From: Roseburia sp.
Lineage (GTDB): Bacteria > Bacillota > Clostridia > Lachnospirales > Lachnospiraceae
Direction: 5' to 3'
Assembly: GCA_017937095.1 (NCBI GenBank)
Contig: JAGBEG010000017.1
Coordinates: 186,001-250,000, forward strand
Length of the DNA stretch: 64,000 nucleotides
Both the position numbers and the translations under genes were made by a program. Shown piece by piece: positions 17,845-35,495 of this stretch (position 1 is its first letter; each line of letters starts with the position of its first letter). Under the pieces are notes generated by a model. The model worked only from the letters and a program-made list of their open reading frames with translations, was not told where the DNA came from and did no database searches.

Positions 17845-17896
17845 GGTGTAAAAATGGTGTAAAGAAAGGAGGCGGTGATTTTAACACGATTTTAAC
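17845..17896 (+). promoter_or_regulatory. OmpR-type direct repeats upstream of ktr operon
   Basis: Two pairs of direct repeats, each with an 11-bp period: GGTGTAAA at 17845 and 17856, and GATTTTAAC at 17877 and 17888. One-turn spacing of half-sites is the signature of OmpR/PhoB/KdpE-family binding. GATTTTAA recurs in front of kdpF. A convincing -10 could not be fixed. Confidence 0.55.
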
Positions 17897-17971
17897 GCGA
17901 AGGAGCAAATCCCAATACGAAAATAATGACGGATGATGCATAATGGCAGTAAGAATGAAACGTTAGCGGGG

Positions 17972-18091
17972 ATGAATATGGACTGGGTTATTTTGGTCGC
18001 CACGTTTGGCGTGATGCTGCTGGGATTTATACCGATGAAATGGGTAGATGAATTTCGCGAGGAGCACAAAGGAGATCATGACGATGAATAA
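17972..18091 (+). CDS. 39-aa single-span membrane microprotein upstream of ktrB
   Basis: ATG 17972 (or ATG 17978, after GCGGGGA) to TAA 18089-18091. The peptide has one hydrophobic segment (VILVATFGVMLLGFIP) and an acidic/basic tail (DEFREEHKGDHDDE). Its stop overlaps the ktrB start by 8 nt, so the two are translationally coupled. By position and shape it resembles KdpF, which stabilises KdpABC, but it shows no sequence match to KdpF. Inference: a small accessory subunit of KtrB. Confidence 0.6.
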   Translation: MNMDWVILVATFGVMLLGFIPMKWVDEFREEHKGDHDDE

Positions 18092-19415
18092 TTGGCTAAA
18101 GAAGGTCAGCTATACGAGGATTATCGCCTTAAGCTTTCTGGTCGTGATATTGATCGGCAGTGTACTTTTGACGCTTCCGGTCTCTTCACGGGATAGAAGC
18201 ATGACTCCGTTTGCGGATGCCGTTTTTACAGCCACAAGCGCTACCTGCGTTACAGGGCTTGTCGTTCGCGATACGGGAACCTATTGGTCGGTATTCGGAC
18301 AACTCGTCATACTTGGGATGATACAGATCGGCGGACTGGGGTTTATGACGATTATCAGTATGTTTTCTATCTTTATGAAGCGCAAGATCAGTCTGAGTGA
18401 AAGACGGCTTTTGATGCAGTCGGCAGGAAATATGCGTCTTAGCGGTATGGTAAAGCTGGTAAAGCAGATTGTAAAGGGAACGGCCGTTTTTGAACTTGCG
18501 GGCAGCGTACTGCTCGCAATTCGCTTCGTTCCAAAATTCGGGTTCGCGCGCGGGGTATACTATGCGGTATTTCACTCGGTATCGGCATTTTGTAATGCAG
18601 GCTTTGATCTGATGGGCGGGTTTCAGTCGTTTACAGCGTATGAGGGGGACGTTCTGGTGAATCTTACGCTGATGGTGCTGATTACGTCTGGCGGACTGGG
18701 ATTTCTTGTCTGGAATGAAATTTACACGAAGGGCAGGAAGTTTGGCGAATATTCCCTGCATGCAAAGCTTGTGCTGGTGACGACGCTGTTCCTTTTCGCA
18801 GTCGGAACAGGTGGCTTTCTGATATTTGAGAGTAACGGCAATCTGGCGGATGATCCGTTTCCAAAGAAGCTTCTCTCGGCGGCTTTTATGTCGGTGACGA
18901 CGAGAACGGCGGGCTTTAACACGATGGACCTGACAGGATTATCACAGGCGGGAACGCTGCTTGCGATGGTCCTCATGTTTATCGGAGGAAGCCCGGGTTC
19001 TACTGCGGGAGGCGTAAAGACGACGACGGTTGCAGTCGTCCTTTTTGCGATGGTCAATATGTCGCGGGGCAGAGAGGATGTTACCATATTTAAAAAGAGA
19101 CTGGAGGATTCGGTTGTAAAGCACGCGGCGGTCATTGTCTTTGTGTATCTGACAGGGGTTCTTATAGCAGGGATGATCATGGGAGCGCTCGAGACAAAAG
19201 GAATTACGGAAATCATGTTTGAAATCATTTCCGCAGCGGGAACGGTCGGATTGTCGAAGGGAATCACACAGACGTTAAGCGATGCCTCAAAGCTCATTTT
19301 GATTGTGATGATGTACGGCGGGCGCATCGGCGGGCTGTCGCTTCTTATGGTATTTCGTGAGAAGGCAAAGGAAGCTCCGGTCAGAAGACCGACGGAAAAA
19401 ATACTGATAGGATAA
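18084..19415 (+). CDS. ktrB: TrkH/KtrB-family K+ channel-like transporter
   Basis: 443 aa counted from ATG 18084, 9 nt after AAAGGAG (18068-18074). ATG 18078 is possible but too close to that site. Four pore-helix/selectivity segments, each with the filter Gly, are seen: TSATCVTGLVV, HSVSAFCNAGFDL, TTRTAGFNTMDL and SAAGTVGLSKGI. They alternate with membrane helices (M1-P-M2 repeats). It moves K+ (or Na+-coupled K+) across the cytoplasmic membrane and needs an RCK ring, encoded 15 nt downstream. Confidence 0.92.
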   Translation: MNNWLKKVSYTRIIALSFLVVILIGSVLLTLPVSSRDRSMTPFADAVFTATSATCVTGLVVRDTGTYWSVFGQLVILGMIQIGGLGFMTIISMFSIFMKRKISLSERRLLMQSAGNMRLSGMVKLVKQIVKGTAVFELAGSVLLAIRFVPKFGFARGVYYAVFHSVSAFCNAGFDLMGGFQSFTAYEGDVLVNLTLMVLITSGGLGFLVWNEIYTKGRKFGEYSLHAKLVLVTTLFLFAVGTGGFLIFESNGNLADDPFPKKLLSAAFMSVTTRTAGFNTMDLTGLSQAGTLLAMVLMFIGGSPGSTAGGVKTTTVAVVLFAMVNMSRGREDVTIFKKRLEDSVVKHAAVIVFVYLTGVLIAGMIMGALETKGITEIMFEIISAAGTVGLSKGITQTLSDASKLILIVMMYGGRIGGLSLLMVFREKAKEAPVRRPTEKILIG

Positions 19416-19430
19416 CGGAGAGTGTAAGAT

Positions 19431-20096
19431 ATGAAGTCGATATTGATTATAGGAATGGGAACCCTGGGAGAACATCTTGCCTTCAAGATGCAGGAGCTTG
19501 GAAATGACGTGATGATCGTGGACAAGAATGAGGAGCGCATACAGGAACTCTCTGTCCGTTTTAAGAACTCGTTTGTCGGAGACTGCGTCAATGAAGGGGT
19601 GCTGCGGTCGCTTGGCGTCAACAATTTTGATTATTGCTTTGTCGCCGTGGGGGAAAATTCCTATGCATCTCTCGAGATTACTTCCATGTTAAAAGAGCTT
19701 GGAGCAAAATATGTGATCTCCAAGGCAAAACGGGTGCGTCAGGCGGAATTTCTAAAGCGCATCGGTGCAGACGAGGTATTCTTCCCGGAGCGGGAGATTG
19801 CAGAAAAGCTGGCGGTGCGCTACAATGCGACGAACATTTTTGACTACATTGAACTGACGGGCGAGTATTCGATTTTTGAGATTCCGATCCTGCCGGGGTG
19901 GGCGGGAAAGAATATCCAGGAGATTGATGTAAGGCGTATGTACAACATTAATATTATCGCGGTAAAACGCTGCCAGATCTTAACGCCGGTATCGGACGGA
20001 ACATATGTGTTCGAGCAAGGGGACCATATCGTTGTCATAGGGAAATCCTCGGACGTCTTCCGGCTATCGGCAAAGACCGAAAAAGAATCATTTTGA
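19431..20096 (+). CDS. ktrA: RCK regulatory subunit of K+ uptake (KtrA/TrkA)
   Basis: 221 aa. The N-terminal RCK Rossmann fold has IIGMGTLGEHLAFKM (intact GxGxxG) and Asp30-Lys for the nucleotide ribose (VDKNEE). The C-terminal TrkA_C domain (about 140-215) is present. It forms the cytosolic ring that gates KtrB in response to ATP/ADP, NAD(H) or c-di-AMP in family members. Its 3' end overlaps by 9 nt the convergent response-regulator gene. Confidence 0.92.
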   Translation: MKSILIIGMGTLGEHLAFKMQELGNDVMIVDKNEERIQELSVRFKNSFVGDCVNEGVLRSLGVNNFDYCFVAVGENSYASLEITSMLKELGAKYVISKAKRVRQAEFLKRIGADEVFFPEREIAEKLAVRYNATNIFDYIELTGEYSIFEIPILPGWAGKNIQEIDVRRMYNINIIAVKRCQILTPVSDGTYVFEQGDHIVVIGKSSDVFRLSAKTEKESF

Positions 20097-20789: not shown

Positions 20790-20813
20790 AAGTTTGCTTC
20801 CTCGTTTCGTATA

Positions 20814-22274
20814 TTATGCGATATCCCCGGGGACGGTAATCGTGAAGATGGCGCCTCCCTGGGGCTGGTTTGCTGCGGTGATCGTGCCGCCGTGGGCGGT
20901 AACGATTGCTTTGCAGATGGACAGACCGAGACCGACGCCCCGGCGGTTGTCAGAATTTCTGACGGGCAGCGTGACAAAGCTCTCAAAAATGTGAGGCAGT
21001 ATGGACGGTTCGATACCGAAGCCGTCGTCGGCGACGGTAAAGATGGCAGAGCCGTTTTCGTAGCTTCCCGAGAGTGTAATCCGGCTGTCTGTACCGGAAT
21101 GCTTAAAGGCGTTGTCCACCAGATTTAAGAGCACCTGCACAAACAGATTTCCGTCCGCATGGACAAGGACAATGGATGCGGGAAGCCGGATAGAAAGACG
21201 GCTGCTGTCATAGGACGCGGGAAGTCTGGTGGCTACCTGTGAGATCAGGTCGTCCATAGACTCGATTTCCTGCTGGATGGAGAGCCTTCCGTCAGAAATA
21301 CGCGTCATGTTGAGAATATTTTGGACCGTCATGGTAAGCCACTCGGCTTCCGTGTTGATGTCTGTCACGAATTTGCAGATTTCATCCCGGGAGAGCGTAT
21401 CGATCTTCTCTGCGATCAGGCTGCTTGCACCGGAGATCTCGGTGAGCGGCGTGCGGAGGTCGTGGGAAATGCTTCGCAGCAGCGTGCTTTTGAGATGTTC
21501 GCTCTCCATATCAAGGCGAATCTGTTCCCGCTCGAGATAAATGTATTCACGGTCGAGCACTAATGCCGTCTGATAGACGGTTGAGCCGACAAGGGTCTTC
21601 GTTTTTGAAGAGAATACCGTTCCTGCCGGAAAGTGTACGAGACCGAAGGTCGTGGATACGCTTTTGATGGGGAAAGATACGCCGTCCGCAAACAGAGCCG
21701 GATCTGTGTCCCTGGGAATGCAGCTTGCAGCAGGTACGGATTCAAAGCGATTGCCCTCCAGGGTAATCATGCAGGGACAGCAGGTCGTCTCATACAGGCA
21801 CTTTAAGGCATAATCTACGATGTGCTCCGCTCCGGTCAGATTTAAAAAGCTTTCCGTCGTCTCGTACATCTGCTGCGCGGTCTGTGCGTTTTCATTTGCG
21901 AGGATGGTCTGGCGCGTGAACTTGGATGCCATGACGCCGCAGATGACCGCCGCAATGGAAAAAAATAAGAGGAGCAGGACGTCCTGCTGATTGCTGATGG
22001 CAAAGGTGTGCACCGGCTCTGTGAAAAAGAAATTATAGCAGAAAATGCAAAAAACAGAGGTCAGGATTCCGTAGAGATACCCCCTTGTGATAACAGTGGA
22101 GAGCAGCACGCCGACAAGCGAGACCATTAAAAGGTTCTGACGGTCCACGCCCGCCTGCTTTAACAGCAGCGAAAGCAGCGTGGTGGCGGCGCAGATGATA
22201 AAAACGGCGCAGATACTGGTTATATGGTATTTTAACAGGGAAGCTCCTTCCCCGGTCTTTCCGGAAGAATACAT
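20814..22274 (-). CDS. DUF4118 sensor histidine kinase (KdpD C-terminal type)
   Basis: 486 aa. DUF4118 four-helix membrane block at about 18-115 (FCYNFFFTEPVHTF is typical of KdpD); a GAF-like region (about 130-240); HisKA with phospho-acceptor His271 (SISHDLRTPL); HATPase with N box LVDNAFKH and G box RRGVGLGLSI. It lacks the N-terminal KdpD (Walker) and USP domains carried by the full KdpD at 32111. Inference: a K+-linked or osmotic sensor controlling neighbouring transporters. Divergent from a second kinase of the same class. Confidence 0.9.
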   Translation of the reverse strand: MYSSGKTGEGASLLKYHITSICAVFIICAATTLLSLLLKQAGVDRQNLLMVSLVGVLLSTVITRGYLYGILTSVFCIFCYNFFFTEPVHTFAISNQQDVLLLLFFSIAAVICGVMASKFTRQTILANENAQTAQQMYETTESFLNLTGAEHIVDYALKCLYETTCCPCMITLEGNRFESVPAASCIPRDTDPALFADGVSFPIKSVSTTFGLVHFPAGTVFSSKTKTLVGSTVYQTALVLDREYIYLEREQIRLDMESEHLKSTLLRSISHDLRTPLTEISGASSLIAEKIDTLSRDEICKFVTDINTEAEWLTMTVQNILNMTRISDGRLSIQQEIESMDDLISQVATRLPASYDSSRLSIRLPASIVLVHADGNLFVQVLLNLVDNAFKHSGTDSRITLSGSYENGSAIFTVADDGFGIEPSILPHIFESFVTLPVRNSDNRRGVGLGLSICKAIVTAHGGTITAANQPQGGAIFTITVPGDIA

Positions 22275-22378
22275 AAGGTTCTCTTTTTCCTAATCTGAAA
22301 TTAATTGACAGGTACATAATGCAGTATACTACATTTTCACAGAAAATGCAGAGTGAAATAGAAAAAGGGGGAATGTTC

Positions 22379-23434
22379 ATGACTGCCTGCAAAAAAGAAT
22401 CAAAACATCTGACGGCAATGCTGCTCTTACTGCTGGCTGCGACGTTGATCGGTTACGGATTTGAGGCGCTGCATGTGCAGGAGACAAACATAGTTCTCAT
22501 ATATGTGCTGGCGGTTCTCATGATCGCGTGGTATACCAATTCCTTTCTCTGGGGAAGCGTCGCGGCCTTTCTGGGAACGGCGGCGTTCAATTTCTTTTTT
22601 ACGCAGCCGACTTTTACCTTAAGCGTTTATGACAGCGATTATTTTCTTACCTTCCTGTGCATGACCGCGGTCGCGGTATTCAGCGCGGCGCTGACGCTTC
22701 AGGCAAAAAAGTACGCCGCGCAGGTGTACATGGAACGCAGACAGACCGAGCAGGAGCAGTACCGGGCGAATCTTCTGCGCTCGATTTCGCATGACCTTAG
22801 AACGCCGCTTATGGGAATCATGGGAACATCGGAGCAGATTATGGATATGTCAGTGGAGAACGACCCGAGGCGTGCCCTTGCAAAGGATATTTATCAGGAC
22901 GCCGACTGGCTTCATTCGCTGGTGGAAAACATTCTGGGGCTGACGAGACTGCAGGATGGGAGGGTGAACATCCAGCAGAGCGCGCAGGCGTTAGAGGAGA
23001 TCATCGGAAGCGCCGTTTCACAGATCGAGAAGAACCATCCCGGTTATGAGATCGATGTACGGCTGCCGGAGACATATATTGAGATCATGGCGGATGCAAG
23101 ACTGTTGGCACAGGTCTTTGTCAATCTCCTCGACAATGCAGTAAAGCATACGCCGCAGGACGGCGAAATCGAAATTCTTGTGAACGAAAAAGATGACAAA
23201 AAGGTGGAGATACTGGTAGAGGACAGGGGAGAGGGGATTGCTCCGGCAGATTTGCCGCATGTGTTTGAACTGTTCTACACGACAGTGGAAAAGGGCGCGG
23301 ATGTCAGACCGGGAATCGGGCTTGGGCTTGCCGTCAGCAAGCTGGTCGTGGAAGCGCATAACGGAACGATTGAGGCGCAGAACCGAAAGGACGGAAGCGG
23401 AGCGGTCTTTCGCATCACACTGCCGGTTCTGTAA
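22379..23434 (+). CDS. DUF4118 sensor histidine kinase, short form
   Basis: Start ATG 22379, 7 nt after AAAGGGGG; ATG 22373 is too close to that site. 351 aa: DUF4118 membrane block (about 10-108, with FNFFFTQPTFTL), no GAF, HisKA with His138 (SISHDLRTPL), HATPase (NLLDNAVKHT, GIGLGLAV). The cytosolic catalytic half resembles that of the divergent kinase and of KdpD, so the three probably arose by duplication. A possible promoter upstream has TTGACA (22305-22310) and TATACT (22325-22330) with a short 14-nt spacer. The response regulator follows after 13 nt. Confidence 0.9.
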   Translation: MTACKKESKHLTAMLLLLLAATLIGYGFEALHVQETNIVLIYVLAVLMIAWYTNSFLWGSVAAFLGTAAFNFFFTQPTFTLSVYDSDYFLTFLCMTAVAVFSAALTLQAKKYAAQVYMERRQTEQEQYRANLLRSISHDLRTPLMGIMGTSEQIMDMSVENDPRRALAKDIYQDADWLHSLVENILGLTRLQDGRVNIQQSAQALEEIIGSAVSQIEKNHPGYEIDVRLPETYIEIMADARLLAQVFVNLLDNAVKHTPQDGEIEILVNEKDDKKVEILVEDRGEGIAPADLPHVFELFYTTVEKGADVRPGIGLGLAVSKLVVEAHNGTIEAQNRKDGSGAVFRITLPVL

Positions 23435-23447
23435 AGGGGAGAGAAAG

Positions 23448-24140
23448 ATGTATAACGAGACAATTTTAATCGTTGAGGACGATCTGCAGATACAGAATTT
23501 TATCGGGTATACCTTAGAAGAGGCGGGGTATTTCGTCATTAAGACCGCAAAGGGAGCGGAAGCGGTTCGTCTTGCGGCAGCGGAGCCGGTGGATATGATG
23601 CTTCTTGATATGGGGCTGCCGGATTTCGACGGCATAGAGGTGCTGCATCAGGTCAGGGAGTGGTCGCAGATGCCGGTCATCATCGTCTCCGCAAGAGATC
23701 AGGATCAGGAAAAGGTGGAAGCGCTCGATATGGGGGCGGACGATTACCTGACAAAGCCGTTTTCGGCGCGTGAGCTGCTTGCAAGAATCCGGCTCGCACT
23801 GCGTCATTATTACCGTATGGCGGGAAACGGCGGGGAGGATATCTTAGTCAACCGCGAACTGCGCCTTGACAGAAACCGTCATATGGTGTTCCGCGGAGAG
23901 GAAGAAATACATCTGACAAAGCTCGAGTATGATCTGCTCGCACTGTTTATGGAGAATCAGGGCAAGGTGCTGACTTACGGTTCGATCTTAAAGGCGTTGT
24001 ACGGAAAGAATTACGGGTCGGATACGCAGGCGCTCAGGGCGCTGATGGCGGGACTCAGAAGAAAACTGGAAAAGAATACGGCAAAGCCGGAGTATATCAA
24101 GACGGAGATCGGAATCGGATACCGCATGACGGAAGGCTGA
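23448..24140 (+). CDS. OmpR/KdpE-family response regulator
   Basis: 230 aa from ATG 23448 (GAGAAAG upstream). Receiver domain with Asp11/Asp12 and phospho-acceptor Asp54 (LLDMGLPDFDG); Trans_reg_C domain ending YIKTEIGIGYRM. Likely partner of the preceding kinase. Its gene ends at a strong terminator, beyond which lies the trk promoter with repeats of another sequence type (TCACA). Inference: this regulator, or the minus-strand one, binds there. Confidence 0.92.
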   Translation: MYNETILIVEDDLQIQNFIGYTLEEAGYFVIKTAKGAEAVRLAAAEPVDMMLLDMGLPDFDGIEVLHQVREWSQMPVIIVSARDQDQEKVEALDMGADDYLTKPFSARELLARIRLALRHYYRMAGNGGEDILVNRELRLDRNRHMVFRGEEEIHLTKLEYDLLALFMENQGKVLTYGSILKALYGKNYGSDTQALRALMAGLRRKLEKNTAKPEYIKTEIGIGYRMTEG

Positions 24141-24153
24141 AGCATCCGGATGG

Positions 24154-24193: not shown

Positions 24194-24223
24194 GCTCTAT
24201 AGGAAACACCTTGCAGACAATTC

Positions 24224-24286
24224 TCACACAATTCTCACACCAGAAGACGAAGCTTCACACACGTCTCACAGGATGGCAGCTATACT
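24224..24286 (+). promoter_or_regulatory. OmpR-type repeats and -10 of TPR-RCK-TrkH operon
   Basis: TCACA cores at 24224, 24235, 24255 and 24266: two pairs with 11-bp spacing, the pairs 20 bp apart. TATACT (24281-24286) follows 15 bp after the start of the last core. The repeats replace a -35 box, as at promoters activated by OmpR/PhoB-family regulators. Confidence 0.6.
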
Positions 24287-24344
24287 GAACGTATCAAATA
24301 CAAAGCGTATTGATGAAAAGAGAATGCAGAAACGGAGTGAGAGA

Positions 24345-24725
24345 ATGTTTTGGGATTTAAGAGAATTGAGTTTTGAAGTAAAGAAGCAGATAGAAAAAGG
24401 AGCTTATGAGGAGGCGCGCCGTCTGATTGCGGATGCAATGCGGGATTATCCGGATTCCGGGGTGCCGCATAATCTGATGGGAATCCTGGCGGAATGCCAG
24501 TGGGATCATGTCGGGGCTATGAAGCATTTTCGTGCGGCATGGGCATTAGAACCGACGTTTCTTCCGGCGCGCTGGAATATGGACAGGTATGGCAGCACGG
24601 AGAGAGCCAATGGATTTGCCTATGTGGCGGAGGACGTACCGCAGGGGGAGCAGGGCGCCGGATATAAGGTAGTCTATGACGACAACGGCGTTGGACACAT
24701 GATAAGAAGGAGGGAGAAACTATGA
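24345..24725 (+). CDS. TPR-repeat protein in K+ island
   Basis: 126 aa from ATG 24345, 6 nt after GGAGTGAG; ATG 24324 is an alternative. Two tetratricopeptide-like helices pairs are visible (EEARRLIADAMRDYPDS, GAMKHFRAAWALEPTF). It is soluble, with no signal peptide. It is the first gene of a tightly packed operon (4-nt overlap with the next RCK gene), so it may be a scaffold or regulator for the RCK/TrkH system. Its function is not known. Confidence 0.65.
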   Translation: MFWDLRELSFEVKKQIEKGAYEEARRLIADAMRDYPDSGVPHNLMGILAECQWDHVGAMKHFRAAWALEPTFLPARWNMDRYGSTERANGFAYVAEDVPQGEQGAGYKVVYDDNGVGHMIRRREKL

Positions 24726-25168
24726 ATCTGTTTGGGAAAAAGGAGAAAAATGCCTACATTATCATAGCAGGCTGCGGGCGTCTGGGCGCGGGGCTTGCAG
24801 CAAGTCTCTCGTTAAAAAAGAAGGACGTCATCGTAATAGACGAAAAGGAAGAGGCATTCCGCAAGCTTGCGGCGTCCTACGGGGGACTGACGATGTGCGC
24901 GGATGCAGCGGACCTTGGAAAGTTAACGGATGCGGGAATCCAGAGAGCAGACGTCTTTATCGCGGTGACGGATAAGGACAATACGAATATCATGGCGGCA
25001 CAGCTCGTCAGACAGCTCTACGGCGTGCGCCATGTGCTTGTCCGGGTCTATGACGAGGAAAAGATCAGGCTGCTTGCGGGAACGGGAATCGAGGCGTTCT
25101 GTCCGGCGGAGCTATCAGAAAAGGAAATCAATCGCTATATGAATTGGGAGGATGAAGATGAAGACTAA
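24722..25168 (+). CDS. RCK (TrkA-N) protein, single domain
   Basis: 148 aa. Only the N-terminal RCK Rossmann domain is present, with an intact nucleotide motif (IAGCGRLGAG) and the ribose-binding acidic residue in VIDEKEE. The TrkA_C domain is absent. It overlaps the TPR gene by 4 nt and the next RCK gene by about 11 nt. Inference: half of a split TrkA, working with the next protein to gate the TrkH at 25826. Confidence 0.85.
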   Translation: MNLFGKKEKNAYIIIAGCGRLGAGLAASLSLKKKDVIVIDEKEEAFRKLAASYGGLTMCADAADLGKLTDAGIQRADVFIAVTDKDNTNIMAAQLVRQLYGVRHVLVRVYDEEKIRLLAGTGIEAFCPAELSEKEINRYMNWEDEDED

Positions 25169-25829
25169 TATTTTACTGGCGGGCGGTTATCACAAAGCGC
25201 TTTCCGTGGGGGAATCCCTGCTGCAGAAAGGCTGTCAGGTCACGATCGTGAACGCGGATAAGCGGGATTGCGAAAGACTGGCGGAGACGGAAGGGTTCAA
25301 GATCATATGGGGCGACGCCAGCAAGGAGTTTATCTTAAAGGAAGCGCAGGCGGCTAAGATGGATATCGTCATTGCGATGGCGCCGAGGGATGAAGATAAT
25401 TTTGTCATCTGCCAGATCTGTAAGAAAATCTACCGGGTGCCGAAGGTGGTGGCGCTTTTAAATGATCCGAAGAAGACGGCTTTTTTCTATCAGATGGGGA
25501 TTGACAGAGTGGTGTGTGCGATAGGCGCGATCACCAATATCATCGAGGAACAGGCGCTGATGGAGAAGATGACGACCATGCTGCCGCTGACAAACGGGAA
25601 GATCAATGTACTGGAAATCCCCATTTTGGAGCAGGCGGGGTTTGAATACACGAAGTTAAAAGACATGAATCTGCCGAAAGATGCAATCATCGGCTGTATC
25701 GTGCGGGGAGAGCACAGTATTATCCCAGGAGGCGATACGATGCTTATGACAGGCGACATCGTCATATTGATCGTCAACGGCGAGGTTAAGGAAGAGGTCG
25801 TGGAAATCTTTACAGGAGGGAAGAAATGA
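25158..25829 (+). CDS. RCK (TrkA) protein with degenerate nucleotide motif plus TrkA_C
   Basis: Start ATG 25158, 6 nt after GGGAGG; ATG 25152 is adjacent to it. 223 aa: a Rossmann fold whose glycine motif reads AGGYHKALSVG instead of GxGxxG, so canonical NAD/ATP binding is doubtful, followed by a TrkA_C domain (about 140-220). Together with the preceding single-domain RCK it supplies one competent and one altered nucleotide site plus one TrkA_C. Its stop overlaps the trkH start (ATGA). Confidence 0.85.
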   Translation: MKTNILLAGGYHKALSVGESLLQKGCQVTIVNADKRDCERLAETEGFKIIWGDASKEFILKEAQAAKMDIVIAMAPRDEDNFVICQICKKIYRVPKVVALLNDPKKTAFFYQMGIDRVVCAIGAITNIIEEQALMEKMTTMLPLTNGKINVLEIPILEQAGFEYTKLKDMNLPKDAIIGCIVRGEHSIIPGGDTMLMTGDIVILIVNGEVKEEVVEIFTGGKK

Positions 25830-27268
25830 TTTCGGCAAAGTCAAATGTATATGGCATTCTTATGATTTTAGAGGGCGTGATGGTATTGGTGCCGCTTGCA
25901 CTGCTGCCGTTCTATCCCGGGGACGCCGTATATCTTCCGTTTTTTGCGGTACCGGGAGGCGTTTCGATTCTTCTTGGCAGATTGCTGTTTTTCAGGCGCA
26001 AGACGCTTGCGGCGGTCTTTGAGGAGAGGGAGAGCAGCCGCGTGGTGCTTTTCGCCTGGGGGTATGGCTTTTTGCTGGCGGCGCTCCCCTTTTTAGGACT
26101 ACGGGATTACCGTTTTACGCAGATTCTGTTCGAGTCTGTGAGCGGTCTTACGACGACGGGACTTTCCGTGCTGGATGTGGAGCGCATGGCGCACATTTAC
26201 CTGTTCTACCGGAGCTTTTTGCAGTTCATGGGAGGCGTCGGCTTTGTCATGATGATTCTGGTCTTTATTCAGGACAAGGATTCCATGGAAATGTACAGTG
26301 CGGAAGGGCATCCGGATAAACTGATGCCGAATATCGGTATGACGGCGAAGGTGATTCTGCTGATGTATGGCGGCTTTCTGGGTGTGGGAACGATACTTTT
26401 GCGGCTGGGAGGCATGACGCTTTTTGACAGTGTCATTCACGCGATGTGCGCGTTGTCGACCGGAGGGTTTTCGAACAGGGCGGCGAGCATCGGCGCATAT
26501 CATTCGATCCGCATAGAACTGGTGACGGTGCTTTTGATGTTAATTGGTACGACCAATTTTGCGGCGCTTTTGTTGCTGCTGCGGCGCAAGTTCAGGCAGT
26601 TTTCCAGAGTCAGCGAAATCCGTTTTCTTGCGGTGTTAGTCGCGTTGTTTGTTCCGGTCATGACATTGTTTTTGACGTATCAGAACGGGTATGGTATCTC
26701 AGAGTCGCTGCGGCTGTCGTTCTTTAATGCGTTTTCGGCGCTTTCTACGACCGGCTATGCGACCTGTGATTACAGTACATGGGGCGCGGGCGCGATCGGC
26801 GTTATGATTCTTCTGATGCTCATTGGCGGCGGTGCAGGCTCTACGGCGGGCGGTATCAAGCTCTCCCGCGTGTATCTGGTACTGCGCAGCTTTTTCTATC
26901 AGGTGAAACGGCGGTTTATGCCGGAGCGTCAGATTCAAAATCTCTATTACGTAAAGCCGATTGAGGGGCGCGTGAAGATTCAGGGACAGCCGCTTGAGGA
27001 GGCAGGGACCTATATGGGGATGTATTTGCTGCTCTACATCTGCGGAACCCTGCTGCTTACGCTGACAGCAGGCTGTTCGCTTACGGATGCGATGTTCGAG
27101 TTCGCTTCGGCATTGGGCACGGTGGGGCTGTCCATTGGCGTCACAGGTCCTGCGGCAAATGACGCCACGCTTTTTATAGAGATTGCGGGAATGCTGCTTG
27201 GGCGTCTTGAAATATTTACCGTATTTCTTGGAATTGTGGGTTTAAGAAAAAGGATAAAACGATTTTAA
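25826..27268 (+). CDS. trkH: TrkH-family K+ uptake protein
   Basis: 480 aa membrane protein; ATG 25826 overlaps the RCK stop by 4 nt. Four selectivity segments: VSGLTTTGLSVL, ALSTGGFSNR, ALSTTGYATC and SALGTVGLSIG. It is longer than the KtrB of this window and distinct from it in sequence, so the two are paralogues and not a recent duplication. Its last codons overlap the repeats of the kdp promoter. Confidence 0.92.
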   Translation: MISAKSNVYGILMILEGVMVLVPLALLPFYPGDAVYLPFFAVPGGVSILLGRLLFFRRKTLAAVFEERESSRVVLFAWGYGFLLAALPFLGLRDYRFTQILFESVSGLTTTGLSVLDVERMAHIYLFYRSFLQFMGGVGFVMMILVFIQDKDSMEMYSAEGHPDKLMPNIGMTAKVILLMYGGFLGVGTILLRLGGMTLFDSVIHAMCALSTGGFSNRAASIGAYHSIRIELVTVLLMLIGTTNFAALLLLLRRKFRQFSRVSEIRFLAVLVALFVPVMTLFLTYQNGYGISESLRLSFFNAFSALSTTGYATCDYSTWGAGAIGVMILLMLIGGGAGSTAGGIKLSRVYLVLRSFFYQVKRRFMPERQIQNLYYVKPIEGRVKIQGQPLEEAGTYMGMYLLLYICGTLLLTLTAGCSLTDAMFEFASALGTVGLSIGVTGPAANDATLFIEIAGMLLGRLEIFTVFLGIVGLRKRIKRF

Positions 27269-27486: not shown

Positions 27487-29324
27487 TGGAAGCGTTGATA
27501 CAGTATGCGGTTTACCTGATCATATTGGTCGGCCTGGCGATTCCGCTCGGTGCGTACATCGGGAAGGTCATGGACGGCGAAAAGGTATTTTTGACCCCGG
27601 TCTTAAAGCCATGTGAGAAACTGGTATATAAGATCATGCGGGTGAAGGAAGAAGAGGATATGACAGCGTCAAAATATATTCTGAGCGCCGTCAGCTTTAA
27701 TGTCATAGGTTTTGTGGTGTTGTTTCTGATCTTAAAATTCCAGAATCTTCTGCCGTTCAACCCGGAGCATTTCGACGGACAGTCCTGGCATCTGGCGTTT
27801 AATACGGCGACAAGCTTTATGACGAATACGAACTGGCAGGCGTACAGCGCGGAGAATCCTTCCGGCGGTCTTAGCTATTTCTCACAGTTCATGGGGCTTA
27901 CGGTACAGAACTTTGTATCGGCAGCCTGCGGTATCGCGGTATTGTTTGCAGTCATCCGCGGATTTGTCCGGGTAAAGCAGAAGGGAATCGGTAATTTCTG
28001 GGCGGACCTGACAAGGACGGTGCTCTATATCTTGATTCCGCTCTGCATCATCTCTACGGTCGTTCTGGTCGCAAGAGGTACGGTTCAGACATTCCGGGGT
28101 TACGATAAAGTACAGCTCTTAGAGCCGATTGCGCTGGATGAAGAGGGAAATATCATTGAGGGCGCGCTGGTAGACAGGGAGACGGGCGTAGTTACACTGG
28201 ACGGCGAAGAGATTACAGCGGCGCAGATCGTCCGTGAACAAGTGGTTCCGCTTGGACCGGGCGCAAGCCAGATTTCCATGAAACAGTTGGGAACGAACGG
28301 CGGAGGCTTCTTCGGATTGAACTCTACACATCCGTTTGAGAATCCGGATGCGTTTACGAATCTGTTTGAAATGATTTATCTGCTCCTGATTCCGGTAGCG
28401 CTCTGCTTTACCTTTGGACGCAATGTACATGACAAGAGACAGGGAGTGGCAATCTTCCTCGCCATGTTTATAATGCTTGTGGCATCGCTTGGCGTATGCG
28501 CGGTAAATGAGCAGAACGGTACGCCGCAGCTTGCGCAGAACGGCGCGGTGGCAGTGGACGCAACCGAGCTGAACGGGTATTCCACGGCAGGCGGAAATAT
28601 GGAAGGAAAGGAGACCAGATTCGGTATTGCAACTTCCGTTACATGGGCGACATTTACGACAGCAGCTTCGAACGGTTCTGTCAACTCCATGCATGATTCC
28701 TACACGCCGCTGGGCGGATTAGTGCCGATGCTTTTGATGCAGCTTGGCGAGGTCGTCTTCGGAGGCGTTGGATGCGGACTTTACGGTATGCTTGCCTTTG
28801 CAATTCTGGCGGTGTTCATTGCCGGACTTATGGTAGGACGTACGCCGGAATACCTTGGAAAGAAGATAGAACCCTTTGAGATGAAGATGGCGGTTCTGTG
28901 CTGCCTTGCGACGCCGCTCGTCATCCTGGTGGGAAGCGGAATCGCAACACTGCTTCCGTCTACTACAGACAGCCTGAACAATATAGGCGCACACGGACTT
29001 TCGGAAATTTTGTATGCATATTCTTCGGCAGGCGGAAATAACGGTTCTGCATTTGCAGGATTTAACGCAAATACACCGTTTATCAATGTCTCGATCGGAC
29101 TGGTTATGTGGGGCGCAAGATTCATTCCTATGATCACGATGCTTCTGATCGCAGGCAGTATGGCAAAGAAGAAGAAGGTTGCTGTCACAGCGGGAACATT
29201 ATCGACCTGCAACGGCCTGTTTGTATTCCTGTTGATCTTCGTCGTACTTTTGATTGGCGCACTGAGCTTTTTCCCGGCGCTGTCACTCGGACCAATCGCG
29301 GAATATTTCCAGATGCTCCAGTAG
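27486..29324 (+). CDS. kdpA: K+-transporting ATPase subunit A (KdpA)
   Basis: 612 aa K+-binding channel-like subunit. Four pore loops: NTNWQAYSAE, GTNGGGFFGLNSTHPFENP, AASNGSVNSMHDS and AGGNNGSAFAG. The second pore loop holds the conserved filter Gly residues. About ten membrane helices. An insert at about 195-260 (VLLEPIALDEEG region) is typical of periplasmic loops in this family. Acts with KdpB in high-affinity, ATP-driven K+ uptake. Confidence 0.95.
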   Translation: MEALIQYAVYLIILVGLAIPLGAYIGKVMDGEKVFLTPVLKPCEKLVYKIMRVKEEEDMTASKYILSAVSFNVIGFVVLFLILKFQNLLPFNPEHFDGQSWHLAFNTATSFMTNTNWQAYSAENPSGGLSYFSQFMGLTVQNFVSAACGIAVLFAVIRGFVRVKQKGIGNFWADLTRTVLYILIPLCIISTVVLVARGTVQTFRGYDKVQLLEPIALDEEGNIIEGALVDRETGVVTLDGEEITAAQIVREQVVPLGPGASQISMKQLGTNGGGFFGLNSTHPFENPDAFTNLFEMIYLLLIPVALCFTFGRNVHDKRQGVAIFLAMFIMLVASLGVCAVNEQNGTPQLAQNGAVAVDATELNGYSTAGGNMEGKETRFGIATSVTWATFTTAASNGSVNSMHDSYTPLGGLVPMLLMQLGEVVFGGVGCGLYGMLAFAILAVFIAGLMVGRTPEYLGKKIEPFEMKMAVLCCLATPLVILVGSGIATLLPSTTDSLNNIGAHGLSEILYAYSSAGGNNGSAFAGFNANTPFINVSIGLVMWGARFIPMITMLLIAGSMAKKKKVAVTAGTLSTCNGLFVFLLIFVVLLIGALSFFPALSLGPIAEYFQMLQ

Positions 29325-31448: not shown

Positions 31449-31478
31449 GCGGGAGACGAAGGAAAGGAGAAGAAAACG

Positions 31479-32114
31479 ATGAGTGCAAAAAAAGTAATTG
31501 GTAAGACAGCGGTTTTATTCTTTCTTATGATGCTGCTTACCGGATTTATCTATACGATGGTGATGACAGGCATCAGCCAGTTGTTGTTCCGCCATCAGGC
31601 AAACGGAAGCATTATTGAGGTAGACGGCGTAAAGTACGGAAGCGAGCTTTTGGGACAGCGCTTTTGCGATCCGTCCCACTTGTGGGGCAGAATCGTGCTC
31701 CCGGATGTGTCTACCTACACAGACGACGAGGGCAATCCGCTCATGTATGCGTGGGCGTCCAACGCATCCCCGGCAAGCGACGAGCAGGCATACGGGGAAG
31801 AAAATTATCAGGACAGCTACGAGGCGGCGGTTGCAGAGAGAGTGGAAATGATAAAGGCGGCAAATCCGGATGCGGAGATGGATGCGATTCCGGTAGAGCT
31901 TGTCACCTGTTCGGGAAGCGGACTTGATCCGCACATTTCCCCGGCGGCAGCGGAGTATCAGGTGCCGAGACTGGCGGCAGAGAACGATATGACCGAGGAT
32001 GAGGTCAGAGAAATTATTGAGAAGTATACAGACGGAAAGTTCCTGGGAATTTTCGGTGAGGAAACCGTAAATGTATTAGAGGTAAATCTTGCACTGGAAG
32101 GGATTCTTGAATGA
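31479..32114 (+). CDS. kdpC: K+-transporting ATPase subunit C (KdpC)
   Basis: 211 aa: one N-terminal membrane helix (about 8-30) and an external domain with YGSELLGQRF, WASNASPAS and the family signature SGSGLDPHISPAAA. It stabilises the complex and raises ATP affinity. Overlaps kdpD by 4 nt. Confidence 0.95.
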   Translation: MSAKKVIGKTAVLFFLMMLLTGFIYTMVMTGISQLLFRHQANGSIIEVDGVKYGSELLGQRFCDPSHLWGRIVLPDVSTYTDDEGNPLMYAWASNASPASDEQAYGEENYQDSYEAAVAERVEMIKAANPDAEMDAIPVELVTCSGSGLDPHISPAAAEYQVPRLAAENDMTEDEVREIIEKYTDGKFLGIFGEETVNVLEVNLALEGILE

Positions 32115-34798
32115 TTGAACCGGAAAGAAATCCTGCGGCTTACCTTAAGATGGCAAAGCAGGCGGAAGAAAAAGAGAAAAAGGGAAAACTGAAAATTTTC
32201 TTCGGGTATGCAGCAGGCGTAGGGAAAACCTACGCCATGCTGTCTGCTGCGAAAAAGGAGAAAGAAGCCGGAACGGATATCGTCATCGGCTACTTGGAAC
32301 CCCATGCGAGACCGGATACACAGAAAAAAGCAGAGGGGCTTCCCTTCGTTCCGACAAGAGAGATGCAGATCAACCGCATTACAGTACAGGAGATGGACAT
32401 TGACGCTATATTAAAGCGTGCTCCGAAGGTCGTGCTGGTCGATGAGATGGCGCATACGAACGCCGACGGATGCAGGCATCCAAAACGGTATCAGGATATA
32501 CTGGAGCTTTTAAATGCCGGAATTGACGTATATACGACCTTAAATGTACAGCATATTGAGAGCGTGCATGACAAGGTGGCGGCAATCACGGGTGTGGCGG
32601 TGCGCGAGCGGATTCCGGACAGTGTCTTTGACCGGGCGGATTCCATCAAGATGGTGGATATCCAGCCGGAGGAACTGTTGGAGCGCCTTTCACAGGGGAA
32701 GATATACAAGAGAGAACGGGCAGCGCAGGCGCTCGACCATTTCTTTTCAGAAGAGAATCTGATTGCGTTAAGAGAAATTGCGCTTCGCCGGATGGCGGAC
32801 TGGCTGAACAATGAGCAGGACGAGATGATCGCGAACGGAAGAAAAGAAAATGCGTCCGAGCATATCATGATGTGCCTGTCGGCGGCGCCTTCCAATGCGA
32901 AGGTCATCCGGCAGGCGGCGAAGCTTGCCAATGCGTTCCACGGGAAGTTTACGGCGTTCTATGTGGAGACTCCCGACGACGAGACGATGGACGCCGCAGA
33001 TGCGCAGCGTCTGAACGAGAATCGCAAGCTTGCCGCAAAATTCGGCGCGAAGATCGTGACGTCTTTTGGAAATGAGATTGTAGAACAGATTGCGGAGTAT
33101 GCCAAAGTCGCCCGCGTGACCAAAATTGTGCTGGGCAGGACCAACACAATGCATCCGCCCTTTTCCGTGAAGGAGAGTATTGCAGAGCGGCTCGCCGCCT
33201 TAGTGCCGAATCTGGAAATCTTTCTGATTCCGGATTTACATGAAAAACGGTATGTGAAAAAGAAAAAGAAGGTACAGATCAATCGCAGATATGTATTGGG
33301 AGATGCAGGGATCGGTCTTTCTATCTTACTTATCACTACGCTTGTCAGCGCAGCGTTTGACCGTATGGGATTTGAGGAAGCGAATCTGATTATGCTCTAT
33401 GTATTGGGTTCGACGCTTGTCGCGCTCTGCGCAAAACACTATATCACCGGAATCTTATATGGCGTCGCAGCAATCTTAACGTTTAATCTGCTGTTCACGG
33501 AACCGCGCTATACGCTTACATATTACAATGCGGGCTATGTGGTGACGTTTTTCATCTTTTTTGTGGTGTCGCTCATCATTTCCATACTGGTAAGGAAGGT
33601 GAAGCTGACTGCCAGAGAAAATGCGAAAAAGGCGTACCGAACCGGAATCCTGCTTGAGACGAGCCAGCTATTGCAGGAGAAGCAGACGGAGGAGGAGATT
33701 GCGGCAAATACGGCGAGACAGATCGGAAGGCTTTTAAACCGCAGTACCTGCTGCTTTATCGGAAGCCCGGAGGGGGGAAGAGAGCCGCAGTATTACGAGA
33801 TTCCGGGACGGCGGATGGAACTGTCGGAGCAGGAGCGCGCGGTTGCCGTATGGTCCTATAAGAACAACAAAAGTGCGGGCGCGACGACGTCCACGCTGCC
33901 GGGCGCGAAGAATCTGTTTTTGACGATACGGAACGGGGAGAAGATTTTCGGTCTGGCAGGCATCGATATGTGCGGAAATCCTTTGAATGCGTTTGAGGAG
34001 AGCGTGATGCTTGCCATCTTAAGCGAGAGCGCGCTTGCTTTCGAGAAGGTGGAGAAGACGCGCAGGGAGCAGGAGATGGCAGTGGAACTCGAGCAGGAGA
34101 AGTTCCGCGCCAATCTGCTGCGCTCGATTTCGCATGATTTTCGGACGCCGCTTACCGTAATCTATGGGAATATGGATATGCTGCTCCGGGAGGATGAGAA
34201 TATGTCCGCCGGGCAGCGGAAGAAAATCTATCAGGATATCGGGGAAGACGCATCATGGCTTTTAAATCTGGTTGAAAATCTTCTGTCGGTGACGCGCATC
34301 GAAAACGGAACCATCCGGCTCAACCGGCAGCCGGAACTGCTCGAGGACGTGGTTTGGGAGAGCCTGCTGCATCTGAGCCGCAGAGCGAAGGAGCATGAGA
34401 TTGTATTCGACCGCCCGAAGGAGTTTTTTCTGGTGAAAATGGATGTGAAGCTGATGATACAGGTCATCATCAATCTGGTGGACAACGCGGTGAAATATAC
34501 CCCGGCAGGTTCGGTCATTGGCATTCAGATGTACCGTGTCGGAAACAGGGTGCGTCTGGAGGTCAGGGATAACGGAGAAGGCATCCCGGATGACCGTAAG
34601 GAGCGGATATTTGATATGTTCTATACAATGGGGAAAAATACGACGGACTGCAGGCGGGGCATGGGACTTGGACTGGCGCTCTGCAAGTCGATTGTAGAAG
34701 CGCATGACGGCAGAATCTGGGTGGAGGACAATCTGCCGAAGGGAGCAGTATTTATCATAGATTTAAAGCTTGAGGAGGCGAAGGAGCATGAAGCATAG
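32111..34798 (+). CDS. kdpD: KdpD sensor histidine kinase, full length
   Basis: 895 aa. N-terminal KdpD domain with Walker A GYAAGVGKT (residues 32-40) and Walker B VVLVDEMAHTN; USP-like domain (about 245-370); DUF4118 four-helix block (about 390-495, NLLFTEPRYTL); GAF (about 515-650); HisKA with His675 (SISHDFRTPL); HATPase (LVDNAVKYT, GMGLGLAL). It senses low K+ or turgor and phosphorylates KdpE; in Firmicutes the USP domain can bind c-di-AMP. Coupled at both ends (overlaps with kdpC and kdpE). Confidence 0.95.
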   Translation: MIEPERNPAAYLKMAKQAEEKEKKGKLKIFFGYAAGVGKTYAMLSAAKKEKEAGTDIVIGYLEPHARPDTQKKAEGLPFVPTREMQINRITVQEMDIDAILKRAPKVVLVDEMAHTNADGCRHPKRYQDILELLNAGIDVYTTLNVQHIESVHDKVAAITGVAVRERIPDSVFDRADSIKMVDIQPEELLERLSQGKIYKRERAAQALDHFFSEENLIALREIALRRMADWLNNEQDEMIANGRKENASEHIMMCLSAAPSNAKVIRQAAKLANAFHGKFTAFYVETPDDETMDAADAQRLNENRKLAAKFGAKIVTSFGNEIVEQIAEYAKVARVTKIVLGRTNTMHPPFSVKESIAERLAALVPNLEIFLIPDLHEKRYVKKKKKVQINRRYVLGDAGIGLSILLITTLVSAAFDRMGFEEANLIMLYVLGSTLVALCAKHYITGILYGVAAILTFNLLFTEPRYTLTYYNAGYVVTFFIFFVVSLIISILVRKVKLTARENAKKAYRTGILLETSQLLQEKQTEEEIAANTARQIGRLLNRSTCCFIGSPEGGREPQYYEIPGRRMELSEQERAVAVWSYKNNKSAGATTSTLPGAKNLFLTIRNGEKIFGLAGIDMCGNPLNAFEESVMLAILSESALAFEKVEKTRREQEMAVELEQEKFRANLLRSISHDFRTPLTVIYGNMDMLLREDENMSAGQRKKIYQDIGEDASWLLNLVENLLSVTRIENGTIRLNRQPELLEDVVWESLLHLSRRAKEHEIVFDRPKEFFLVKMDVKLMIQVIINLVDNAVKYTPAGSVIGIQMYRVGNRVRLEVRDNGEGIPDDRKERIFDMFYTMGKNTTDCRRGMGLGLALCKSIVEAHDGRIWVEDNLPKGAVFIIDLKLEEAKEHEA

Positions 34799-35495
34799 TA
34801 CGTCATTGATTCTGGTGGTGGAGGACGACCGGTCCATCCGAAATCTGATTACCAATACCCTGGAAATACACGGGTATAGGAATATAGCTGCGGATAACGG
34901 GCAGAATGCGCTTATGCAGATTACGTCGCATCACCCGGATATTATTCTTCTGGATCTGGGGCTGCCGGATATGGACGGAACAGACATTATCGGGAGAGTG
35001 CGCCAGTGGTCGCTGTGCCCGATCATTGTAATCAGCGCGAGAACAGAGGATGCGGATAAGATTGCGGCGCTGGACGCCGGGGCGGACGATTACCTGACGA
35101 AGCCCTTTTCTGTGGAGGAGCTTCTGGCGCGTATCCGTGCGACACTGCGCAGACTGAACTATCTGGAGAGCAGGGAGGCGCGGGAGGAGGAGATTTTCCG
35201 GAATGGTGATCTTGTGATTGATTACGGCGCGGCGACGGTAACGGTCGGGAAAGAGCAGATTCACCTGATGCCGATCGAGTACAGCGTACTGTGTCTGCTC
35301 GCGAAGAATATCGGGCGTGTGCTCACCTACAGCTATATCTTAGATCAGGTGTGGAAGAGCAGGCTTGAGGGAGACGTATCGTCTCTTCGGGTATATATGG
35401 CGTCTCTGCGGAAGAAGATCGAACCGAAAGAAGCCAGAGGAACCTACATCCAGACGCATACCGGAATCGGCTACCGGATGCTAAGGGTGGAATAG
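34788..35495 (+). CDS. kdpE: KdpE response regulator
   Basis: 235 aa from ATG 34788 (GAAGGAG upstream), inside the last codons of kdpD. Receiver with Asp13/Asp14 and phospho-acceptor Asp56 (LLDLGLPDMDG); winged helix (LMPIEYSVLCLLAKN, ending YIQTHTGIGYRM). Activates kdpFABC; the 11-bp-spaced boxes at 27262-27311 are its likely site. Confidence 0.94.
   Translation: MKHSTSLILVVEDDRSIRNLITNTLEIHGYRNIAADNGQNALMQITSHHPDIILLDLGLPDMDGTDIIGRVRQWSLCPIIVISARTEDADKIAALDAGADDYLTKPFSVEELLARIRATLRRLNYLESREAREEEIFRNGDLVIDYGAATVTVGKEQIHLMPIEYSVLCLLAKNIGRVLTYSYILDQVWKSRLEGDVSSLRVYMASLRKKIEPKEARGTYIQTHTGIGYRMLRVE

What the first reader, a model, noticed from the sequence alone, without database searches (positions are those of the whole stretch)
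17845..35495. Potassium super-island: Ktr, Trk and Kdp systems with three KdpDE-like two-component systems in one run
Almost every gene over 17.6 kb concerns K+: microprotein-ktrB-ktrA, regulator/DUF4118 kinase (minus strand), DUF4118 kinase/regulator, TPR-RCK-RCK-trkH, kdpFABCDE. These systems are usually scattered. All three kinases share DUF4118 and the same SISHD phospho-acceptor context, but only one keeps the Walker and USP sensor domains. Inference: a graded K+ response in which low-, medium- and high-affinity uptake are controlled by related but specialised kinases, possibly with cross-talk.
Basis: partly seen in the sequence, partly recalled or inferred. Interest (0 to 1): 0.8.

Follow-up and report, generated by a model that had tools for sequence, protein, structure and literature searches.

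The report
Potassium island with two operator codes
A gut-type bacterium keeps three potassium-uptake systems and three related sensor-regulator pairs side by side, and the DNA in front of each uptake system carries matching switch sites in two different 'dialects', which suggests that one ancestral potassium switch was copied and re-keyed for several pumps.

Summary
The gene content is confirmed: microprotein-ktrBA, RR1/HK1 (minus strand), HK2/RR2, TPR-RCK-RCK-trkH and kdpFABCDE. The three DUF4118 kinases found in the genome all lie here. The full three-transporter set was seen in 1 of 37 kdpA loci, but its modules recur. Kinases and regulators form three old, concordant lineages, not recent copies.

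The new evidence is in the promoters. A motif re-fitted without this genome marks ktr (17847-, 17878+) and kdp (27262+) as the best sites in the 35 kb scanned; it also finds the known E. coli KdpE site. A second motif, TTCTCACAN3TTCTCACA, learned from 36 loci of the RR2 lineage, has one exact match in the 3.89-Mb genome, between a terminator and the trk operon (24220). In all three promoters a -10 hexamer starts 61 bp after the first box, and relatives peak at that distance.

Best reading: KdpE-type regulators activate ktr and kdp, and RR2 activates trk through a re-keyed operator. So ktr and kdp probably share regulation, while trk looks largely separate. 'Graded affinity with cross-talk' is only partly supported: affinities, signals and phosphotransfer are untested. 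I found no published description in the searches named.

The parts
17798..17829 (+). Terminator-like hairpin after gltD, upstream of the ktr operator
   Evidence: 14-pair stem followed by a T run
17847..17866 (-). KdpE-type operator, reverse orientation, ktr promoter
   Evidence: 19.9 bits; 19.6 with this genome held out
17878..17897 (+). KdpE-type operator (ATTTTAA-N4-ATTTTAA), ktr promoter
   Evidence: 18.8 bits, 17.9 held out; one of two exact ATTTTAAN4ATTTTAA in the genome
17939..17944 (+). -10 hexamer CATAAT, starting 61 bp after the first box
17978..18091 (+). Microprotein upstream of ktrB (start chosen by me)
   Evidence: weak similarity (E about 1e-3 to 1e-2) to small ORFs near kdpD in G028, L205, G019
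18048..19415 (+). ktrB (TrkH family)
   Evidence: PF02386 185.7 bits; TIGR00933 348.1 over its cut-off 331.15
19431..20096 (+). ktrA (RCK N+C)
   Evidence: PF02254, PF02080
20088..20789 (-). RR1, OmpR/KdpE-type regulator of lineage 1
   Evidence: Pfam; RR trees
20814..22274 (-). HK1, DUF4118-linker-HisKA-HATPase kinase without the KdpD N-terminal part
22376..23434 (+). HK2, DUF4118-HisKA-HATPase kinase, shortest form
23445..24140 (+). RR2, lineage-2 regulator with altered recognition helix
24152..24189 (+). Intrinsic terminator between RR2 and the trk operator
   Evidence: 17-pair stem plus T run; fold z = -4.64
24220..24239 (+). Lineage-2 operator ATTCTCACA-CA-ATTCTCACA
   Evidence: only match with 2 or fewer mismatches in the genome; 31.4 bits, window not in the training set
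24251..24269 (+). Degenerate second operator pair at +31
   Evidence: scores only 3.9 bits
24281..24286 (+). -10 hexamer TATACT of the trk operon, starting 61 bp after the first box
24324..24725 (+). TPR protein, likely start (the ORF start at 24150 is over-extended)
   Evidence: terminator, operator and -10 lie inside the longer ORF
24722..25168 (+). RCK protein, N domain only
25152..25829 (+). RCK protein, N+C domains
25826..27268 (+). trkH
   Evidence: PF02386 166.9 bits
27262..27281 (+). KdpE-type operator (ATTTTAA-N4-ATTTTAA), kdp promoter, overlapping the end of trkH
   Evidence: 20.1 bits, 19.2 held out; second exact genome match
27293..27312 (+). Second kdp operator pair at +31
   Evidence: 9.1 bits
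27323..27328 (+). -10 hexamer TATACT of kdp, starting 61 bp after the first box
27397..27486 (+). kdpF
27486..29324 (+). kdpA
   Evidence: PF03814 765 bits
29373..31448 (+). kdpB (retains TGES)
31479..32114 (+). kdpC
   Evidence: PF02669
32111..34798 (+). kdpD, full length (KdpD/Walker domain, USP region, DUF4118, HisKA, HATPase)
34788..35495 (+). kdpE

Best explanation
The island is three separately promoted potassium-uptake operons (ktr, trk, kdp) plus three KdpDE-related two-component systems of old, separate lineages. Shown by sequence: (1) each transporter operon has the same promoter plan, with paired 11-bp-phased boxes, a second pair about 31 bp on (recognisable at kdp, degenerate at ktr and trk) and a -10 hexamer starting 61 bp after the first box; (2) ktr and kdp use KdpE-type boxes, while trk uses a different box (TTCTCACA pairs) that travels with the HK2-RR2 lineage across Clostridia. 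Inferred: phosphorylated KdpE (and perhaps RR1, most of whose relatives sit beside Ktr or Trk genes) activates ktr and kdp as two dimers, the nearer one near the -35 position; RR2 activates the trk operon in the same way through its re-keyed recognition helix. The kinases are presumably driven by potassium shortage or osmotic stress. KdpD alone keeps the N-terminal part that in E. coli also phosphorylates KdpB.
For: Motif 1 arose without KdpE input from 136 upstream regions (log-likelihood 399.6 against 95-100 in 3 shuffled sets) and ranks the proven E. coli KdpE site first in 12 kb (17.6 bits, next 8.6; site from PMC3264566, passages read). Re-fitted without each genome in turn, 57 of 73 hits over 16 bits fall in the 4.6% of DNA within 350 bp upstream of the scored K+ or kinase genes. 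A motif-1 site over 14.5 bits lies within 700 bp upstream of ktrB in 15 of 16 loci and of kdpA in 25 of 36 (matrix not held out). Motif 2: 29 of 36 lineage-2 loci, log-likelihood 420 against 70-79 in 4 shuffled sets, window not in the set; one exact match in the genome. The -10 hexamer peaks at +61: 21 of 62 motif-1 sites and 13 of 32 motif-2 sites, against means of 1.34 and 0.38 per offset; all three window promoters fit. The recognition helix differs between lineages while the DNA-contact residues are kept. Terminators lie before the ktr and trk operators.
Against: No binding, expression or phosphotransfer data exist. RR1's own target is not determined: ktr might answer to KdpE, RR1 or both. 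The second boxes at ktr and trk are degenerate, and the ktr -10 is CATAAT. 7 of 36 lineage-2 loci lack motif 2 in the stretch tested, and two of the 36 (L154, L185) have a motif-1 site of 18.9 and 21.7 bits in that stretch, so the dialects are not strictly separate everywhere. 11 of 36 fetched kdpA genes lack a motif-1 site over 14.5 bits within 700 bp. Genome-wide counts of loosely matching sites are no higher, or hardly higher, than those of the reversed pattern (109 against 113; 42 against 44; 7 against 5 for motif 2), so only the strict sites are informative. The held-out matrices were re-fitted starting from the full matrix. The training sets hold some related genomes.
Confidence: 0.74

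Rival explanations
1. One reading: a graded response in which the three kinases read different potassium levels and share regulators by cross-talk across all three uptake systems.
For: All three kinases share DUF4118 and the H-box context. ktr and kdp share one operator class. L154 has both operator classes in one stretch. Cross-phosphorylation of KdpE by PhoR is documented in E. coli (PMC5458449, passages).
Against: In the window trk has a different operator that the KdpE-type matrix does not recognise (-3.8 bits), and RR2's recognition helix differs. HK and RR lineages have stayed with their partners. Affinities and thresholds are untested.
Confidence: 0.22
2. Mere clustering: the three systems were gathered by transfer or neighbourhood selection, and each pair regulates only its own neighbour, HK1-RR1 acting on ktr alone and KdpDE on kdp alone.
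For: Modules recur in many arrangements in relatives. G036 has ktrBA-HK1-RR1 with KdpE-type boxes and no KdpA match. The ktr promoter has two boxes of slightly different flavour, one reversed.
Against: The ktr(+) box is the same ATTTTAA type as the kdp box and resembles kdp boxes of the window's KdpE sub-lineage, so KdpE should bind both unless RR1 competes.
Confidence: 0.3
3. The boxes belong to a more general OmpR/PhoB-type regulator, not to the local systems.
For: Phased direct repeats are common to this regulator class (general knowledge).
Against: Strict sites in the genome concentrate in this island (3 of 7 exact motif-1 pattern matches; the only motif-2 match with 2 or fewer mismatches). 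The four other motif-1 matches lack a good -10 at +61. Motif 2 follows the RR2 lineage across families.
Confidence: 0.07

Closest known systems
KdpD/KdpE controlling kdpFABC (E. coli, S. aureus, S. fredii, M. smegmatis)
   Same: kdpFABCDE here has full-length KdpD, KdpE, and a promoter carrying E. coli-type direct repeats (TTTATA-N5-TTTACA; PMC3264566 passages; matrix check).
   Different: KdpE-type boxes are also at ktr. In S. fredii KdpE bound kdp but not trkA or kup (PMC9239096 passages), and Ktr of S. aureus is described as constitutive (PMC4686210 passages).
KtrAB and TrkAH uptake systems
   Same: Same transporter and RCK families.
   Different: TrkA is split into an N-only and an N+C RCK protein behind a TPR protein, and each operon has its own KdpDE-like system or operator nearby.
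KdpD variants split into serine-kinase and histidine-kinase chains
   Same: Separate chains are reported, the commonest HK partner being TM/GAF/DHpCA (PMC11018627, section 8 read).
   Different: In the window a full KdpD coexists with two extra short kinases. In relatives a kinase-less N+DUF4118 form lies next to kdpC (14 of 69 scored proteins, the window's three among the 69).
C. acetobutylicum KdpE box
   Same: Reported as similar to the E. coli box (stated in PMC5401905, passage; original not read).
   Different: The passages I saw say nothing about ktr or trk promoters there.

Membership tests
KdpD (full sensor kinase) | N-terminal KdpD domain with Walker motif (window KdpD) | tested here: met
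   KdpD 32111-34798: PF02702 315 bits; G-x5-GKT found.
KdpD (full sensor kinase) | USP domain (window KdpD) | tested here: inconclusive
   Full-length KdpD model aligns almost end to end (652.1 bits) and the KdpD non-kinase model over 20-372 (327.9, cut-off 550), but Pfam reported no USP family at E 0.001.
KdpD (full sensor kinase) | HK1 and HK2 carry the KdpD N-terminal part | tested here: not met
   No PF02702 in either and no N-terminal match; they are KdpD-like kinases, not KdpD.
KdpD (full sensor kinase) | NCBIfam KdpD equivalog cut-off (1123 bits) | tested here: not met
   HK1 201.6, HK2 206.8, and even the window KdpD only 652.1.
DUF4118 histidine kinases | DUF4118 + HisKA + HATPase_c | tested here: met
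   All three over the Pfam cut-offs.
KdpE regulators | DNA-contact residues R193, R200, T215 of E. coli KdpE | tested here: met
   R, R, T in window KdpE, RR1 and RR2, matched by eye to E. coli KdpE printed; contacts from PMC3264566.
KdpE regulators | KdpE-type recognition helix and operator for RR2 | tested here: not met
   Helix DTQALRALMAGLRRK against D(I/V)ASLRVFMATLRKK; trk operator -3.8 bits on motif 1.
KdpE regulators | NCBIfam KdpE equivalog cut-off (325 bits) | tested here: not met
   Window KdpE 222.2 bits, best family hit but below cut-off; RR1 and RR2 were not scanned with NCBIfam.
KdpFABC pump | kdpF, A, B, C contiguous; KdpB with TGES | tested here: met
Ktr/Trk transporters | TrkH-family membrane subunit plus RCK partner | tested here: met
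   PF02386 and PF02254/PF02080 in both operons.
Ktr/Trk transporters | Single-chain double-RCK TrkA | tested here: not met
   Two chains, 148 and 225 aa; the 148-aa chain reaches no TrkA equivalog cut-off (the 225-aa chain was not scanned there).
KdpDE-type two-component system | Phosphotransfer and K+ response | not testable with these tools
   Needs protein or expression work.

The most novel reading that the evidence does not exclude
One ancestral KdpDE switch has radiated into several lineages that keep one promoter geometry (box pairs at 0 and about +31, -10 at +61) but have diverged into largely orthogonal operator dialects. Each regulator-plus-operator unit can be plugged into different potassium transporters (Trk, Ktr or Kdp). 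The window holds three such lineages at once, making a compact modular potassium circuit. The HK2-RR2 lineage would be a previously undescribed, dedicated regulator of split-TrkA/TrkH operons across Clostridia, Erysipelotrichia and some other groups.
Probability: 0.6. Interest if true: 0.72.

Novelty: new variant of a known kind. Interest (0 to 1): 0.62.

Why it matters
Trk and Ktr are usually treated as constitutive housekeeping systems with Kdp as the induced one. These promoters predict that in many gut Clostridia all three are switched by KdpDE-type regulators, and that genomes with no detected Kdp pump still use KdpDE-type systems for Ktr. Two operator dialects with one geometry give a natural set of paralogous regulators in which specificity divergence can be tested directly.

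Tried and rejected
c-di-AMP riboswitch: no Rfam match at gathering threshold anywhere in the window, so riboswitch control of ktr or kdp is not supported. Recent local triplication: rejected by the HK and RR trees; a first HK tree with badly cut domains was discarded, and three long-branched regulators (G105b_1687, G199_18075, G238_5754) were left out. A first lineage-2 motif run picked up the coding end of RR2 and was redone on DNA after the RR2 stop. The lineage-2 motif was first seen by eye and only then sought without bias. One search left out three loci (G208, G207, G005) by a slip; the full recount is 85 of 99 motif-1 hits over 14.5 bits within -60 to 700 bp upstream of a K+ or regulator gene. 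Extension of the motif-1 regulon: four other exact pattern matches in the genome lack a good -10 at +61 and were set aside as chance; three of them lie upstream of a sulfatase, a protein kinase and an HTH protein. Generic sigma-70 scanning gave 21 promoter-like sites against a shuffled mean of 16.3 and was not used. AlphaFold and fold search were not run. Literature: the ten searches listed no paper that I could see describing KdpE-type operators at ktr or trk, or the TTCTCACA box; most listed papers were seen as titles and abstract starts only, and only openly licensed papers are held.
Full report
WHAT IS THERE. The three DUF4118 proteins are the only ones found in the 3.89-Mb, 94.6% complete genome. 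They form a size series. KdpD has the Walker-bearing N-terminal part, DUF4118, a linker and the kinase; HK1 lacks the N-terminal part; HK2 also lacks the roughly 144-residue linker that the three aligned relatives keep. The ORF called TPR from 24150 is over-extended: a terminator (24152-24189), an operator and a -10 lie inside it, and translation more likely starts at 24324.

HOW UNUSUAL THE ISLAND IS. Among 60 genomes searched (the window's own included), KdpA was found in 3 (own, G022, and G039 below cut-off) and DUF4118 in 17 (16 over cut-off). In 397 genomes of the family, 40 have a KdpA match; 36 of these (37 loci, the window included) have a long match. A TrkH-family gene lies within 12 kb of kdpA in 13 of these 37 loci; excluding the window it is 12 of 36 against 0.77 expected. 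One of the 13 is a fragment (G163), two are in one genus (G074, G399), and contig ends hide some neighbours. Three DUF4118 proteins lie within about 20 kb of kdpA in 3 of 37 loci (window, G208, G381). Two TrkH-family genes beside kdpA were seen only in the window. G208 (probably the same record as named locus L143, Hungatella hathewayi) has HK2-RR2-TPR-RCK-RCK-TrkH-kdpABC in the window's order. Thus the modules recur, while the complete set is rare.

THREE OLD LINEAGES. Trees of kinase domains (47 rows) and regulators (48 rows; 119 rows) agree. Lineage 1 holds HK1/RR1 with G036, G074, G105a and G312 (all beside Ktr or Trk genes; RR support 97/94) and, (support 92), also L192 (beside kdp only). 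Lineage 2 holds HK2/RR2 with 38 other regulator rows (four of them duplicate records), SH-aLRT 100. KdpD/KdpE group with G359, G382, G144 and G443 (100/95, 100/98). HK1, RR1 and some others are long branches. The window's three systems are therefore not local duplicates.

OPERATOR DIALECT 1. ATTTTAA-N4-ATTTTAA occurs exactly twice in the genome, in the ktr and the kdp promoter (with up to 2 mismatches, 109 against 113 for the reversed pattern, so there is no general excess). An expectation-maximisation search of 136 regions upstream of K+ and kinase genes (window included) gave ATCTTTATACAATCTTAATA, 19.5 bits, log-likelihood 399.6 against 95-100 in three Markov-shuffled sets. It contains TTTATA-N5-TTAATA; the proven E. 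coli KdpE half-sites are TTTATA-N5-TTTACA (PMC3264566, passages read). Run over 12 kb of E. coli K-12 it puts that site first (17.6 bits, next 8.6). After re-fitting without the window's genome (starting from the full matrix), the three best hits in window 10000-45000 are 17847(-) 19.6, 27262(+) 19.2 and 17878(+) 17.9, next 12.9. Leaving out each genome in turn over 1.02 Mb of loci, 57 of 73 hits above 16 bits lie within 350 bp upstream of the scored genes, 4.6% of the DNA. With the full matrix, a site over 14.5 bits lies within 700 bp upstream of ktrB in 15 of 16 loci (the exception is the window genome's other ktrB, on C13, which has no DUF4118 neighbour) and of kdpA in 25 of 36. These ktrB loci were mostly fetched because a DUF4118 or kdpA gene is near, so they are not a random sample. 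An opposite-strand box, as at window 17847, occurs at 9 of the 15 ktrB promoters and 0 of the 25 kdpA promoters (at least one, G306, shares its region with a divergent kdpD).

OPERATOR DIALECT 2. Between RR2 and the TPR gene the window has ATTCTCACACAATTCTCACA (24220). It is the only match with 2 or fewer mismatches in the genome (six others have 3 mismatches; reversed control 5 in all). I noticed it by eye first. In 36 named lineage-2 loci (33 placed by the tree; L188, L164 and L174 added by best hit; L212 left out because its contig ends; window excluded) an unbiased search then gave TTCTCACAGCATTCTCACAG, 27.5 bits, log-likelihood 420 against 70-79 in four shuffled sets, present above 12 bits in 29 of 36. 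The seven without are L185, L175, L170, L172, L157, L145 and L186; L157 and L175 have a match elsewhere in the locus. By my count, 23 of the 36 loci have a TrkH gene on the same strand. The same operator stands before KtrBA in L166, before RCK-RCK-KtrBA in L150 and before TPR-kdp in L158. The window, not in the set, scores 31.4 at 24221; the kdp box scores -13.4 and the ktr boxes 11.7 and 9.4, below the best other window hit of 13.1. The trk box scores -3.8 on dialect 1. Against a clean split: in L154 and L185 the same stretch also holds a dialect-1 site (18.9 and 21.7 bits).

SAME GEOMETRY. In both dialects a second pair tends to follow at +30 to +32, and a TATAAT-like hexamer (1 mismatch at most) peaks 61 bp after the first box: 21 of 62 dialect-1 sites (9 more at +62; mean 1.34 per offset, with lesser peaks at +7 and +13 inside the motif itself) and 13 of 32 dialect-2 sites (4 more one base later; mean 0.38). 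The dialect-2 matrix starts one base into the box, so its +60 is +61 here. The window island is in neither set. All three window promoters have a -10-like hexamer at exactly +61: CATAAT 17939, TATACT 24281, TATACT 27323. Terminators precede ktr (17798-17829) and trk (24152-24189), the two with the most stem pairs in the region. The recognition helix of lineage 2 differs from KdpE (DTQALR(A/S)LMAGLRRK against D(I/V)ASLRVFMATLRKK), while the residues matching E. coli R193, R200 and T215 are kept in all three window regulators.

MECHANISM. Most likely, KdpE-type regulators bind as two dimers and activate ktr and kdp, and RR2 does the same at trk through its own dialect. Shown: sites, geometry, lineages. 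Inferred: binding, activation (rather than repression), signal, and which of KdpE and RR1 acts at ktr. KdpE is the likelier at 17878 because kdp promoters of three of its four sub-lineage relatives (G382, G144, G443) use the same TTTTAA flavour. The reverse box 17847 could be RR1's, as lineage-1 relatives carry boxes such as ATCTTTACACAATCTTAACA (G074), but this is a guess.

AGAINST KNOWN SYSTEMS. In S. fredii KdpE bound kdpFABC but not trkA or kup (PMC9239096, passages). S. aureus Ktr is described as constitutive (PMC4686210, passages), and E. coli Trk and a second low-affinity system as constitutively produced (PMC5458449, passage). KdpD split into serine-kinase and histidine-kinase chains is known (PMC11018627, section 8 read). 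In the relatives here, DUF4118 kinases occur beside Ktr in genomes with no KdpA match (G010, G012, G017, G019, G028, G035, G036). Two of them (G017, G028) are near full length with the Walker motif, whose known substrate KdpB would then be missing; several of these genomes are incomplete, and KdpB itself was not searched for genome-wide. The ten searches listed no paper that I could see reporting these operators at ktr or trk; subscription journals are mostly not held.

VERDICT. The interpretation needs splitting: shared KdpE-type control is likely for ktr and kdp, and a separate dialect for trk. It is a new variant of a known kind.

Noticed in passing
11615-17787: gltB and gltD (glutamate synthase; named by me from the sequence, no family search run) lie directly upstream of the potassium island, separated from ktr by a terminator-like hairpin; glutamate is the usual counter-ion of potassium (general knowledge).
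   Followed up: no
L068 (G207), L070 (G381), L062 (G455) and others, upstream of kdpF: A second conserved microprotein (MMDxxM...LFxDWCExQ) precedes kdpF in many relatives' kdp operons; the search found none at the window's kdp.
   Followed up: partly
loci: KdpD-type proteins occur as 25 with N part, DUF4118 and kinase, 22 short DUF4118 kinases and 14 kinase-less (N+DUF4118) among 69 scored; by the maps the 14 kinase-less ones lie next to kdpC.
   Followed up: partly
L088 (G017), about 14500-16500: Fragments matching HK2 and a regulator, possibly a decayed lineage-2 module or an assembly fault, still have TTCTCACA operators (15066 and 15098, minus strand) next to a ktr-kdpDE set.
   Followed up: no
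window 17847 and ktrB promoters of relatives: Opposite-strand KdpE-type boxes occur at 9 of 15 ktrB promoters but 0 of 25 kdpA promoters with a site; looping or dual control is possible.
   Followed up: partly
G010, G012, G017, G019, G028, G035, G036: KdpDE-type pairs beside Ktr in genomes with no KdpA match, so the system is not tied to the Kdp pump.
   Followed up: partly
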